DNA from: an uncultured Saprospiraceae bacterium
GTDB taxonomy: Bacteria; Bacteroidota; Bacteroidia; Chitinophagales; Saprospiraceae
Reading direction: 5' to 3'
Assembly: GCA_937941095.1 (NCBI GenBank)
Contig: CALDYJ010000085.1
Location: 1 to 64,000 of the forward strand
DNA: 64,000 bases
Shown here: positions 5,575 through 10,449 of the stretch, one piece after another
How positions within the stretch are numbered: the first letter of the stretch is position 1
Layout of the letters: the number at the start of each line of letters is the position of its first letter
Translations under genes and position numbers: made by a program
The notes under the pieces: model-generated
What the model saw: only the letters and a program-made list of their open reading frames with translations
The model's database searches: none
What the model was told of the DNA's origin: nothing

Positions 5575-6714
5575 TTATGAGTCGGCAGTCACACCTGCTA
5601 AGATCTCTTCGTAATATTCTTCATAAATCGGAAGGATGTTTTGAATATCAAATTGTTCAGCTTGCGCCAAAGCATTATTTTTAAAGACTTGATGTCTTGA
5701 TTCATCAGAAAGTATCTCAATACTTCTTTTAGCCATTGCTTCTACATCACCAACATCACATAAATAACCAGTCTGCCCTTCGATGTTTACTTCAGGTAAT
5801 CCCCCAGCATTAGAAGAAACAACAGGTACTTCACAAGCCATTGCTTCGAGAGCCGCTAAGCCAAAACTTTCACTTTCTGAAGGCATTAAAAAAAGATCTG
5901 AAACCGCAAGCAATTCTTCTATCGCATCTTGTTTGCCCAAGTACCTCACTTTGTCGCAAATGTGAAGGGTTCTGCATAATTCCTCAAGATTTTGTCTTTC
6001 AGGGCCATCACCTATCATTAATAAAGTTGATGGCATTGCTTGATGTATTTTCTGAAATATTCTTATTACATCATCCGTTCTTTTTACTTTTCTAAAGTTA
6101 GAAACATGAGTAATAACTTTTTCTCCATCAGGTGCGATGGCTTTCTTGAAATGATCCTTATTCGTTTTTTGGAATCTTTTTAGATCAATAAAGTTATGAA
6201 TGGTTTTAATCTCTTTATTGATGTTGAAGGTGCTTAAGGTTTGCTTTTTTAGGTTATCAGATACCGCTGTAACTCCATCGGAATTATTAATTGAAAATTC
6301 TACCACTGGAGCAAAGGAACTATGATTTCCAACTAAGGTTATATCTGTTCCATGGAGCGTTGTAATAAATGGGATATTAATTCCTTTAGTCTTTAAAATC
6401 TGCTTAGCCATAAAAGCAACAGCTGCATGAGGGATAGCATAATGAACATGAAGTATATCTAATTCTGCATGCATGACCACATCTACAAGCTTACTTGTTA
6501 AAGCAGTATCGTAAGGAGTATATTCAAACAGCGGATAATCAGCAGTGCTCACTTCATGGTAAAACACATTTTGCTGAAAACTATTTAAACGAGTTGGTTG
6601 TCTATAGGTGATAAAATGAACTTTATGTCCTTTCTGAGCTAGGCCTTTTCCTAATTCAGTCGCTAATACACCTGATCCACCATAAGTTGGGTAACAAACA
6701 ATTCCTATATTCAT
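5575..6714 (-). CDS. bshA: N-acetyl-alpha-D-glucosaminyl L-malate synthase BshA
   Basis: 379-aa GT4 (GT-B fold) glycosyltransferase. It begins [22 protein letters not shown] and contains FITYRQPTR and [13 protein letters not shown], all distinctive of BshA. The retaining GT E-x7-E motif is E282...E290 in [19 protein letters not shown]. BshA joins UDP-GlcNAc and L-malate in the first step of bacillithiol synthesis, the low-molecular-weight thiol of many Bacteroidota and Firmicutes. Length is normal. bshB and bshC are not in this window. It converges on porZ and is monocistronic as far as visible. Confidence 0.95.
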
Positions 6715-6772: not shown

Positions 6773-8797
6773 TTAATCTACAATGATTTTCCTACTTATT
6801 TGGCCCTGTCCGTCGCTTAGATTCAACAAATAGAGTCCTGTATTAAGACCACTAACATTTATTACACTCGAAATTTCTTGATTCTTTTCGAAATCTCTCT
6901 CCAAAATCAATTGTCCGAGTGAATTATAAAGACAAAGATGAATTGTTTTTAGCTCACTAAAAGATGCTTGCACATGCAGGTCATTTTTTACTGGGTTTGG
7001 ATATATATTTAGGGCTTCCAAAGCTGCTAAGTTTTGATCAGCAACCAAAGCTCTTACTTCGATAAATTCTGTTTGTTCGCAGCCTTCAGCATCTGTTACT
7101 GTAACGGAATAAATTCCTGAGCCTAAATTAGAAACTGTATTTGTATTTCCAGCAACACTTCCCCAATCATAAGTAATCGGCTCAATGCCTGTTACATTTA
7201 CGATGGTGATTGAACCATTATTTTCTCCTTCTACTGTTTCGTCAACAACATTTACATCTTCAAGGATATCAAACAATCCATTGTCGCAATTATAAATTTG
7301 AATGTCATCAAAATCTGCCCAGAATTCATCTGAGTTTCTAATCATGGTAAACCTAAATTCAACCGATTCTCCTGCATAAGCTGCGAGAGAATAGTTTAGC
7401 GTTCTCATGGAACTACTTGCCGTATTGTTATGATTAGATTCATTGATTAAACCTAAGACCTCCCAAGATGCACCACAATCACTTGATACTTCTACAGTCA
7501 ACATCTCACCAATTTCAATTTGATGAGCTTGAGCATTCCCTGCTCCATTTACAGTAACAAATCTGTAATCAAATAATAGTTCTTCATCCATTCCTAAAAT
7601 TCCATACCTAGCAGTACTAAAACTAAAGTAGCCATTTAAGTCACTCATGTAAGAACCGATCACTCCAGTGACGTTGCCATGATCTCCCATCTGATAAATG
7701 GGATCGATCAAATTAGTGTTCCACTGATTAGGCAAATCTGCCGTTTCAAACTTTTCTTTAAATGGAAGTTCATAGGTATGAATGAAGGTATAGGTGAAGG
7801 TATCATTAGACATGTCTCCGTCATCAATTGTCGTTAAGGCATATTGATTAGAAGTGTAAAACTCTGTCCATACCTTTATTTCATATGCTCCAGGGCTACT
7901 TATGTTTATTGGAGCTTCAAAAGCAATGTTATGACAGCTGTCTTTACCAATAACGCCAGTGTACAATCCATCTGTCGGTATATTTTGTACCCCACCTTCA
8001 CCATTGATGCTGTAATTAAAAGGGATATTCGCTTGAGGAAAAGTTCCGTAATTTTTAATAAATATTTCTAAGGTATCCGAATTTAGGTACTCGCATTTTT
8101 GTCCATTAAATGGTCTTAGAATTCCAGACACCCCAACGTCGACATTAAATATTGTTGTGAATTCATCTGAAAGAACAATGCTTGTATCACCACTTGCACA
8201 AACTAAGTAGATGTAGTATTCATAACAAGTATTTTCCATTAAGTTTAAGAACGTATAATCAGTATCAGCAGTCATGTCTGAAACTTGTGTATTCGGCATT
8301 CCACATTCCTGATATTCTATTACATAATTTCCAACGGCATTGGAAGCATCCCAATCAATCTGGGCAGAATTTCCTAACACATCCACTGTACTCAAGGTAT
8401 TGGATGGTAAAGCAGGACACAATGGACACAAAACAAAATGAGTAAACACTACTCCAGATGCTGGAGGATTACCAGATTCAAACAAAAGTTGATCGTCTGA
8501 ATCATGTAGGACATAAGAATGCTCAATTTCTGCTCCTGTTCCTGGAATGTATTCAACTGAAATTGAATCTCCTTCTGACACGGTGAAATCTACACTATTA
8601 GTAAAGCCATCGTCATTCATCCCATCAAGGGTGAAATTGTTAGCAACTCCATTTACATAAACAATAACTTCTGCAGCTTCCCAGCCATCACCAAAAGCAT
8701 CATTCATGACCAAAGTATGAAAACAGGAGTTTTGACTAAAACTAGTTGTTAATGTTGCAAACAAGAATAGTAATACGGTTAATATCTTTCTAAACAT
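6773..8797 (-). CDS. Secreted T9SS cargo with fibronectin-III and SprB-type repeat
   Basis: 674 aa from the ATG at 8797. An upstream in-frame ATG at 8857 would put 20 residues before the signal peptide, so the later start, MFRKILTVLLFLFATLTTSFSQ, is preferred. After the signal there is a CUB-like/proprotein-type domain (NDAFGDGWEAAEV), a fibronectin-III-like module (TLSTVDVLGNSAQIDWD...YEYYIYLVC), a jelly-roll region, one SprB-type repeat (NGSITIVNVTGIEPITYDW ... GIYSVTVTDAEGC), and a C-terminal T9SS sorting domain (IYPNPVKNDL ... LNTGLYLLNLSDG ... KIIVD). It is probably secreted and surface-anchored; the function is unknown. A 3' neighbour, bshA, is unrelated. Confidence 0.85.
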   Translation of the reverse strand: MFRKILTVLLFLFATLTTSFSQNSCFHTLVMNDAFGDGWEAAEVIVYVNGVANNFTLDGMNDDGFTNSVDFTVSEGDSISVEYIPGTGAEIEHSYVLHDSDDQLLFESGNPPASGVVFTHFVLCPLCPALPSNTLSTVDVLGNSAQIDWDASNAVGNYVIEYQECGMPNTQVSDMTADTDYTFLNLMENTCYEYYIYLVCASGDTSIVLSDEFTTIFNVDVGVSGILRPFNGQKCEYLNSDTLEIFIKNYGTFPQANIPFNYSINGEGGVQNIPTDGLYTGVIGKDSCHNIAFEAPINISSPGAYEIKVWTEFYTSNQYALTTIDDGDMSNDTFTYTFIHTYELPFKEKFETADLPNQWNTNLIDPIYQMGDHGNVTGVIGSYMSDLNGYFSFSTARYGILGMDEELLFDYRFVTVNGAGNAQAHQIEIGEMLTVEVSSDCGASWEVLGLINESNHNNTASSSMRTLNYSLAAYAGESVEFRFTMIRNSDEFWADFDDIQIYNCDNGLFDILEDVNVVDETVEGENNGSITIVNVTGIEPITYDWGSVAGNTNTVSNLGSGIYSVTVTDAEGCEQTEFIEVRALVADQNLAALEALNIYPNPVKNDLHVQASFSELKTIHLCLYNSLGQLILERDFEKNQEISSVINVSGLNTGLYLLNLSDGQGQISRKIIVD

Positions 8798-8907
8798 TGG
8801 AAATCTTTTTGATAAGAACAAAATTAGTCTAAATATCGAAAAATTAATATCGTGCATTTATTAATATTCAATAAAATGTTGTTCCTAACTGTATAGTAAT
8901 AAACAAT

Positions 8908-8940
8908 TTTGCAAATCTTGTGTTCTAAACTTTGCAAATC
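8908..8940. promoter_or_regulatory. Paired TTTGCAAATC direct repeats upstream of merR-type gene
   Basis: TTTGCAAATC occurs at 8908-8917 and again at 8931-8940, 23 bp apart centre to centre (about two helical turns). Each contains the 8-bp palindrome TTTGCAAA. They lie 31-63 bp before the MerR-type start codon in the divergent gap. Identical, phased palindromic half-elements suggest an operator bound by a dimer or tetramer, plausibly autoregulatory. This is inference from arrangement only. Confidence 0.45.
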
Positions 8941-8970: not shown

Positions 8971-9852
8971 GTGGCTTTATATTCAATAAAAGATTTAGAA
9001 AAATTATCAGGCATAAAAGCCCACACTATTCGCATCTGGGAACAACGATATGAGATTTTGCAACCTCAGCGTACAAAAAGCAACATCAGGTACTATCAAG
9101 ATTACGATTTAAAGGTCTTACTCAACATAGCGCTTTTAAATAAAAATGGGATAAAAATTTCTAAAATCGCTGACATGAGCCATTTAGAAATTGCAGAAAA
9201 AGTTGCAGCTATTTCTGAAATTAATGTAGAATCCCCGACACAATTAGATGCATTGACCATTTCAATGATTGAAATGGATGAGTATAAATTTGATCGAATC
9301 ATTTCAACTAATATCCAGCAGATGGGCTTTGAAAAAGCCATGCTCGAGGTTATTTTTCCCTTTCTGGATAAAATTGGAATGCTTTGGTTGACGGGATCTA
9401 TCGAACCGATCCAAGAAAGTTTTATTAGCAACTTAATCAGACAAAAGATTATTGTTGCCATAGACAATGAACCTGTTCCTGTAGGCAATGATCTGCCTAA
9501 ATTCTTTATCTATACCCCTCCTGGTGAACGTCAAGAATTAAGTATTTTATTGATGCATTTTTTAATCAAATCTAGGAAGAAAAAGGTGATCTATTTAGGT
9601 CAAGACATAAGCATACAAGATCTTAAAGATGCTCATAGAATTAATACGCCTGATTTCATTTTTACGCTCATCTCAGAATCTTTTACAAAAAAACCAATCA
9701 AGGATTATGTAGATGATTTATCCCGTGCTTTTCCAAATACAAAATTAATCTTATCTGGCTATCAGGTGATCTCTCAAAACATCAGCTCTAGTAAGAACAT
9801 AAAGGTATTAGAAAGTCTTTCTGATACAATCTCCTATATAAATAACGTTTGA
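8971..9852 (+). CDS. MerR-family regulator with degenerate B12-binding (CarH/LitR-like) domain
   Basis: 293 aa. Residues 1-70 are a MerR winged helix (YSIKDLEKLSGIKAHTIRIWEQRY). Residues 90-170 correspond to the four-helix cap and 175-293 to the Rossmann-like cobalamin-binding domain of CarH/LitR-type light sensors. The cap motif W-x9-E-H reads W139-x9-E149-S150. The lower-ligand motif E-x-H-x-x-G reads E186-R-Q188-E-L-S191, so the cobalamin-ligating His and the following Gly are both replaced. A B12-independent regulator is the likely reading. The family typically controls carotenoid or photoprotection genes; none lies adjacent. A hairpin terminator follows. Confidence 0.85.
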   Translation: MALYSIKDLEKLSGIKAHTIRIWEQRYEILQPQRTKSNIRYYQDYDLKVLLNIALLNKNGIKISKIADMSHLEIAEKVAAISEINVESPTQLDALTISMIEMDEYKFDRIISTNIQQMGFEKAMLEVIFPFLDKIGMLWLTGSIEPIQESFISNLIRQKIIVAIDNEPVPVGNDLPKFFIYTPPGERQELSILLMHFLIKSRKKKVIYLGQDISIQDLKDAHRINTPDFIFTLISESFTKKPIKDYVDDLSRAFPNTKLILSGYQVISQNISSSKNIKVLESLSDTISYINNV

Positions 9853-9944
9853 ATTTATTGAGTTAAGTAGAATTAACCTTTATGCCTTTCGGGAAAATTG
9901 AAAGTTGATCCAATCAGAAAAAATTATTAAATTATAATCAAAAT

Positions 9945-9976
9945 GAGAGAAGCACCTTTTATAAGGTGTTTCTCTT
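9945..9976 (+). terminator. Intrinsic terminator after merR-type gene
   Basis: GAGAGAAGCACCTT (9945-9958) pairs with AAGGTGTTTCTCTT (9963-9976) through one G-U and a terminal mismatch, with a TTAT loop and a pyrimidine-rich 3' arm. An ATG at 9943 precedes this hairpin, which argues against translation of the next gene from there. Confidence 0.6.
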
Positions 9977-9984
9977 CAATACCT

Positions 9985-10449
9985 ATGCAGAAATCAATCT
10001 TTTTAACATTTATAATCTCCTTTTGCTTCAGCATTAATTTACTCATTGGTCAAAGAACATTCAATAAGTCTTTTTCGTTTGGATATGATGCCTCCAATGT
10101 TGAAGGCCAAACATCATGGATTGTAAAAATGGATCCCTTTGGATGCCTAGTCCCTGGTTGTCAGGAGCTCACAAATATTGAGTCTGTAGATAAAGTTGAC
10201 ATAAAAATGCTGCTTTATCCTAATCCTGCTCATGATTTTCTCAACCTTGCCATTGGCGCTACCAATCAAAATCAGGACGCTAAAATTGTACTTAGCAACT
10301 TGCAAGGTCAAACTTTAAAAGAAGTTGACCTTCAGCTCACGCCAGTTAATTTAATGTTGGATTTGCATGACCTAACAAGTGGTATTTATATTGTCCAATA
10401 CATTGTTGATGGACTTGTTTTGAAATCAGAGAAGTTAGTGAAGGAATAG
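9985..10449 (+). CDS. Short T9SS sorting-domain protein (stub or internally deleted cargo)
   Basis: 154 aa from the ATG at 9985; the in-frame ATG at 9943 sits in the upstream terminator. A signal peptide (MQKSIFLTFIISFCFSINLLIGQ) is followed by only about 50 residues, including WIVKMDPFGCLVPGC. In larger Bacteroidota proteins that segment is the last repeat before the sorting domain. A complete T9SS type A CTD follows (LLYPNPAHDFLNL ... LTSGIYIVQYIVDG). So it looks like the two ends of a much larger secreted protein joined together. Either it is a remnant with an internal deletion or a genuinely tiny T9SS cargo. No frameshift is visible. Confidence 0.6.
   Translation: MQKSIFLTFIISFCFSINLLIGQRTFNKSFSFGYDASNVEGQTSWIVKMDPFGCLVPGCQELTNIESVDKVDIKMLLYPNPAHDFLNLAIGATNQNQDAKIVLSNLQGQTLKEVDLQLTPVNLMLDLHDLTSGIYIVQYIVDGLVLKSEKLVKE

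What the first reader, a model, noticed from the sequence alone, without database searches (positions are those of the whole stretch)
8971..9852. MerR/CarH-like regulator that lost both cobalamin signatures
The cap motif W-x9-E-H is W-x9-E149-S150 and the axial-ligand motif E-x-H-x-x-G is E186-R-Q188-E-L-S191. The fold context is otherwise intact. In CarH the His binds cobalt, so a photosensor of that type should not work here. The protein may sense something else or have become constitutive.
Basis: partly seen in the sequence, partly recalled or inferred. Interest (0 to 1): 0.5.

Follow-up and report, generated by a model that had tools for sequence, protein, structure and literature searches.

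The report
Light-type regulator without its vitamin B12
A gene switch related to the vitamin B12-based light sensor CarH has lost the residues that hold B12, a loss shared by nearly its whole clade of Saprospiraceae relatives, yet it still appears tied to genes for light protection, so those bacteria probably read light by another route.

Summary
In detail: ORF 8971-9852 (+) is a MerR/CarH-like protein with W139-x9-E149-S150 and E186-R-Q188-E-L-S191 in place of Wx9EH and ExHxxG. It is not a local oddity. The window belongs to a clade ("MerR*") of Bacteroidota homologues; 2 of 112 non-redundant members keep the full W/EH/H/P signature, against 81 of 83 related H-forms. Positions fixed in H-forms but lost in MerR* are the published cobalamin contacts (G of GxxW, H of EH, H of GxxH, P of GxxxP); W139 and E149 stay. 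The genome still encodes AdoCbl-type mutases, so B12 itself was not abandoned. A directional element, TAAAC-N16-TGTT, lies upstream of merR* (70/144), of unlinked crtI operons (24/40 vs 3/240 other genes), of photolyase (7/29 vs 0/84) and of an SRPBCC-type gene (5/27 vs 1/101). Best reading: a B12-independent CarH/LitR-type regulator that stayed in the photoprotection circuit and takes its signal from elsewhere, comparable in working to CarA or class II LitR. Whether MerR* or an ECF sigma factor binds the element is unresolved, and the input signal is unknown. New variant of a known kind.

The parts
8971..9852 (+). merR*: CarH/LitR-like MerR regulator, 293 aa, GTG start; HTH (res. 4-69), four-helix bundle (88-165), Rossmann domain (177-292)
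9385..9420 (+). Cap motif W139-x9-E149-S150 (His of EH replaced by Ser)
9526..9543 (+). Axial-ligand motif E186-R-Q188-E-L-S191 (ligand His replaced by Gln)
9610..9612 (+). S214 at the Pro position of GxxxP
8900..8924 (+). Shared regulon element TAAAC-N16-TGTT, 71 bp upstream of the GTG start
6773..8857 (-). T9SS-sorted secreted protein (Por_Secre_tail), conserved divergent neighbour
5575..6714 (-). bshA, N-acetyl-alpha-D-glucosaminyl L-malate synthase (bacillithiol), conserved neighbour of merR*
9943..10449 (+). Small ORF with T9SS tail where many relatives have a YceI gene; not part of the conserved unit

Best explanation
merR* encodes a CarH/LitR-type transcription regulator whose lineage lost cobalamin ligation while keeping fold and DNA-binding head, and which stayed in the circuit that controls photoprotection (itself, crtI-crtB carotenoid operons where present, DNA photolyase, an SRPBCC-type protein). 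It would act without B12, with light or photo-oxidative information arriving through another component (a partner protein as with class II LitR and LOV, a CarS-like antirepressor, or a sigma factor), not through its own AdoCbl. Shown: loss of the signature, its clade-wide extent, intact predicted fold, shared upstream element. Inferred: absence of B12 binding, that MerR* itself acts in this circuit, that the stimulus is light.
For: Full W/EH/H/P signature in 2 of 112 MerR* vs 81 of 83 H-forms. The columns conserved >90% in H-forms and <60% in MerR* are 136, 150 and 214, and 188 is diverged H to Q: the published GxxW/EH/GxxH/GxxxP contacts (PMC11796333, sections 8 and 11). Residue 188 changes between His and not-His at least 8 times inside MerR* by parsimony, so the ligand site is not held. 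Clade support: SH-aLRT 100; split of MerR* (plus the distant TtCarH) from H-forms 99 under a C20 model. Element TAAAC-N16-TGTT: 70 of 144 MerR* upstreams vs 0.5 by shuffling, 47 of 112 after de-replication; crtI 24 of 40 vs 3 of 240 other genes in the same loci (p 5e-21); photolyase 7 of 29 vs 0 of 84, SRPBCC-type 5 of 27 vs 1 of 101, own genome excluded from the target counts; only spacing 16 is enriched. AdoCbl-type enzymes present in the genome.
Against: No experiment. In the window's own genome the element is not more frequent than its reversed control (19 vs 36 sites). The element is directional (crtI 25 sense, 2 opposite), which fits a promoter of an alternative sigma factor as well as or better than a symmetric MerR operator. 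The known class II operator and tandem 11-bp CarH repeats are absent upstream of the window gene. The window genome and two congeners lack phytoene synthase, so no carotenoid target here. 16 of 40 crtI, 22 of 29 photolyase and 22 of 27 SRPBCC-type genes lack the element. No photoreceptor partner was looked for. W139 and E149 being kept (94%, 97%) is odd for a dead pocket. Two MerR* members (L185, L186) keep the full signature.
Confidence: 0.58

Rival explanations
1. The upstream element is the -35/-10 promoter of an ECF sigma factor (the orthologue of the sigma gene that sits directly downstream of many H-form merR genes). merR* and the photoprotection genes are then members of an ECF regulon, and MerR* works at another, unseen site or on another level. 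This rival concerns the mechanism and can be true together with the B12-free photoprotection reading.
For: AAAC-N16-TGTT has ECF-promoter geometry (recalled from sigma-W type promoters); it is directional; the ECF gene is adjacent and downstream of 44 of 90 H-forms and of a few MerR* genes and is present in 115 of 120 family genomes.
Against: The ECF gene itself lacks the element (0 of 23 anchored loci; none in promoter position in 30), unusual for an autoregulated ECF; TAAACA and TGTTGA fit the CarH half-site TnnACA (half-site from PMC9304148 passages).
Confidence: 0.5
2. MerR* still binds a cobalamin or another ligand in the old pocket without protein-His ligation (base-on, water or Gln side), and senses it.
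For: W139 (94%) and E149 (97%), which lie at the adenosyl group in CarH, are kept; 13 of 112 members still have H188.
Against: H150, H188 and P214 are lost in most members, with residue 150 free to be N, S, H, Q and others.
Confidence: 0.15
3. MerR* was recruited to a new local role: control of its conserved neighbours bshA (bacillithiol) and yceI.
For: Divergent bshA and downstream YceI recur in MerR* loci: bshA 45, YceI 46 of 117 Gln-forms; 7 and 10 of 11 capless forms; H-forms have them in 2 of 90 only.
Against: The shared element also lies at unlinked crtI and photolyase genes; in the window there is no YceI downstream and bshA is separated by a 2-kb gene.
Confidence: 0.2
4. A decaying or constitutive relic.
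For: The sensory residues are gone and sites 188 and 150 vary.
Against: Open frame, about 40-70% identity to MerR* relatives over full length and HTH residues T19, R21, W23, E24, R26 invariant in 96 aligned sequences; a homologue is present in 110 of 120 family genomes.
Confidence: 0.07

Closest known systems
CarH / class I LitR (T. thermophilus, B. megaterium, M. xanthus)
   Same: HTH + four-helix bundle + Rossmann architecture, predicted fold, W and E of Wx9EH, association with carotenoid genes
   Different: No cap His, no axial His, no GxxxP Pro, no H132; NCBIfam CarH score 89 of 400
CarA of Myxococcus xanthus
   Same: B12-independent member beside B12-dependent paralogues; carotenoid circuit that includes an ECF factor (PMC8156234, PMC9304148, passages)
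   Different: [quoted passage not shown] MerR* keeps the Trp and loses both His. No CarS known here (not searched)
Class II LitR (PplR, PmlR2 of Pseudomonas)
   Same: PF02607 recognised but not the second B12 domain; photolyase in the regulon; B12 judged not to bind (PMC9758184, passages)
   Different: Known operator TGTACA-N12-TGTACA absent here; different lineage; no LOV partner established
CtMerR (Chloracidobacterium thermophilum)
   Same: CarH-like fold without the H132 equivalent
   Different: CtMerR keeps GxxW, EH, GxxH, GxxxP and is a B12 photoreceptor (PMC11796333, section 11)

Membership tests
CarH / class I LitR | MerR HTH + four-helix bundle + Rossmann B12 fold | tested here: met
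   (fold predicted, not solved)
CarH / class I LitR | Wx9EH cap motif | tested here: not met
   W139-x9-E149-S150
CarH / class I LitR | D/ExHxxG axial-ligand motif | tested here: not met
   E186-R-Q188-E-L-S191
CarH / class I LitR | Curated NCBIfam NF052513 cut-off | tested here: not met
   89.1 of 400 bits
CarH / class I LitR | AdoCbl binding and photolysis | not testable with these tools
   needs purified protein
CarA-type B12-independent regulator | Keeps B12-binding motif and EH, lacks Trp of Wx9EH | tested here: not met
   opposite pattern
CarA-type B12-independent regulator | CarS antirepressor | not tested
   no search made
Class II LitR | PF02607 only, no recognisable PF02310 | tested here: met
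Class II LitR | Operator T(G/A)TACA-N12-TGTA(C/T)A upstream | tested here: not met
   0 of 232 homologue upstreams
Class II LitR | Short-LOV partner | not tested

The most novel reading that the evidence does not exclude
MerR* is a separate, Bacteroidota-born class of LitR/CarH regulator: the corrin pocket, with W139 and E149 kept and Q188 and N/S150 installed, now holds a different ligand or an antirepressor partner, so a photoprotection regulon was handed from a B12 photoreceptor to another light or redox sensor.
Probability: 0.2. Interest if true: 0.7.

Novelty: new variant of a known kind. Interest (0 to 1): 0.5.

Why it matters
B12-free members of the CarH family are known in Myxococcus and Pseudomonas. 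Here a whole clade of Bacteroidota shows the same loss by a different residue pattern, with intact paralogues in some of the same genomes and a readable shared promoter element. That makes it possible to ask what replaces B12 as the light input, and it warns that 'CarH' or 'B12-binding' annotations in Saprospiraceae may mislead.

Tried and rejected
Pattern counts in the own genome: TAAACNNTTN12TGTT 6 sites, reversed control 17; TAAACMWWN13TGTT 19 sites, control 36; so there is no genome-wide enrichment, and the list of own-genome targets (photolyase, SRPBCC-type, ferrochelatase, Zn/Mn-binding protein, SelL-like redox protein, Crp/Fnr, GNAT-like, a membrane protein) stands on position alone, except that photolyase and SRPBCC-type were then tested in the family. 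Only sites in sense orientation before an ORF are in that list; the other sites lay inside ORFs or pointed away. CarH tandem repeats TnnACA-N5-TnnACA: 10 of 232 upstreams vs 3.7 by shuffling, none with three repeats, none before the window gene: dropped. Another His as ligand: the window has His at 18, 71, 196, 222 only; H196 is in 66% of MerR* and 16% of H-forms; its place relative to the pocket was not measured because model coordinates were not readable in the Python box. Cavity filling was not measured for the same reason. bshA as target and the YceI link: kept as a rival.

Rows dropped: 28 identical sequences before the 232-row table (260 to 232); fragments under 220 aa and rows over 82% identical before the tree (to 196); L221 (branch 2.35, placed outside MerR* though it has bshA/YceI neighbours) left out of the H-form counts. 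Photolyase loci are the best 30 of 98 matching genomes; SRPBCC-type 28 usable of 30 fetched of 70 matching genomes; crtI 40 of 96 genomes with PF00494, chosen by me and not at random, 39 of them with a homologue of the window protein; the exception (G445, L353) has no element. ECF: 23 of 30 loci anchored.

Full report
Check. Pfam finds a MerR HTH and the four-helix B12-binding_2 domain but no B12-binding Rossmann domain; the best solved relative is T. thermophilus CarH; NCBIfam CarH scores 89 against a cut-off of 400. The alignment gives W139-x9-E149-S150 and E186-R-Q188-E-L-S191. The bis-His residue H132 of CarH is L140, and the GxxxP proline is S214. Published work names GxxW, EH, GxxH and GxxxP as the light-sensing signature (PMC11796333, abstract and sections 8 and 11 read).

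Extent. The genome has one copy. Homologues at 1e-10 occur in 253 of 395 genomes sampled from the class and 110 of 120 of the family. Eighty named loci from another collection are mostly Saprospiraceae, with Cytophagales and Carboxylicivirga further out. Among 231 distinct homologous sequences besides the window (one locus counted as two fragments), 117 have Gln at the axial-His site, 90 have EH plus His, 11 have His without EH, 13 other.

Tree. On 196 sequences plus TtCarH, with the trait columns left out, a clade of 112 tips holds the window (SH-aLRT 100): 90 Gln, 11 His without EH, 2 with EH and His, 9 other. A 93-row tree under a mixture model gives the same split with support 99, with the distant TtCarH falling on the MerR* side, so which side is older is open. 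Some genomes carry both kinds: G342, G405 and G509 each have a crt-linked EH+His gene and a Gln gene beside bshA. The state at residue 188 changes at least 8 times within MerR*, so loss is not a single clean event, or there were reversions; His and Gln codons differ by one base.

What was lost. Comparing 112 MerR* with 83 H-forms, the columns over 90% conserved in H-forms and under 60% in MerR* are 136 (G of GxxW), 150 (H of EH) and 214 (P of GxxxP); 188 is H in 99% of H-forms and Q in 80% of MerR*. Other differing columns are mild (I/L, Y/F, A/V). By entropy, columns 150 and 214 rank first and second of 292, 136 fifth, 188 twelfth; columns 154, 211, 146 and others also lost conservation. The window itself keeps G136. 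W139 (94%) and E149 (97%) stay. The predicted fold is intact: pLDDT 89.5 and pTM 0.75 for the window, 94.0 and 0.88 for an H-form; both match CarH 5c8d best. I could not measure the cavity.

B12 in the cell. The genome has a methylmalonyl-CoA mutase and a fused protein with B12 and MeaB domains. So cobalamin is likely used elsewhere in the cell (inferred from the families).

Neighbourhood. H-forms have an ECF sigma gene directly downstream on the same strand in 44 of 90 and crtI or crtB nearby in 31 and 29; flank lengths varied, so these are lower bounds. MerR* genes have divergent bshA, a T9SS-sorted gene, and a YceI gene downstream. The window has bshA (TIGR03999, 576 bits) and the T9SS gene, no YceI. 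A few MerR* genes still have the ECF gene next door.

Shared element. Upstream of MerR* genes TAAAC-N16-TGTT occurs in 70 of 144, shuffles 0.5; in H-forms 14 of 88, shuffles 0.4; after de-replication 47 of 112 and 14 of 84. In the window it is at 8900-8924. I then tested genes elsewhere in the genomes: crtI 24 of 40 against 3 of 240 other genes of the same loci (25 with a slightly longer stretch); photolyase 8 of 30 against 0 of 84; SRPBCC-type 6 of 28 against 1 of 101. Without the own genome these are 7 of 29 and 5 of 27 (p 4e-5 and 0.002). Spacing 16 alone is enriched and the orientation is fixed. The ECF gene lacks it. In the own genome the pattern is not over-represented. 'SRPBCC' is my name; Pfam gives only a weak PF03364 match below its cut-off.

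How it may work. The regulon resembles the photoprotection set that CarH and LitR proteins control elsewhere (class II LitR: photolyase; PMC9758184 passages). I infer that MerR* stays in that circuit without B12. Two readings of the element remain: a MerR operator made of two CarH-type half-sites TnnACA (PMC9304148 passages), or an ECF promoter. Fixed orientation leans to the second, absence at the ECF gene to the first. The input may be a partner protein (LOV with class II LitR; CarS with CarA, PMC8156234 passages), singlet oxygen through a sigma factor, or a new ligand.

Novelty. No paper in the held library has both CarH and Saprospiraceae; a search with CarH and Bacteroidota terms gave two papers, neither about such a regulator by its listing; another five-term search gave none. 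A Nonlabens carotenoid paper notes a MerR gene in the cluster (PMC11855829 passages). B12-independent CarH relatives are known, so this is a new variant of a known kind.

Noticed in passing
L342:1501-1527 (own genome C42:1564-1590): Perfect dyad TAAACAA-N13-TTGTTTA about 50 bp before a Zn/Mn ABC substrate-binding protein gene.
   Followed up: partly
L352 (own genome C167:3695-3719): The regulon element lies 24 bp before a ferrochelatase gene, of interest because protoporphyrin IX is the light sensor of the Myxococcus CarA pathway (PMC8156234 passages).
   Followed up: no
Own genome, G402, G508: All three sampled members of the window's genus lack phytoene synthase (PF00494), 96 of 120 in the family sample have it: carotenoids seem lost in this genus (draft genomes).
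   Followed up: partly
window 5575-6714: bshA suggests bacillithiol is made; it is a regular neighbour of merR* genes.
   Followed up: partly
L185:5001-5885, L186:1540-2439: Two MerR* clade members with bshA/YceI neighbours still have EH, His and GxxxP; good test cases for retained or regained B12 binding.
   Followed up: partly
L082, L083: Members with EH but Asp at the ligand site and the ECF gene still downstream: possible intermediate forms.
   Followed up: no
alignment column 196 (window H196): A His two helical turns after the ligand site is in 66% of MerR* and 16% of H-forms.
   Followed up: no
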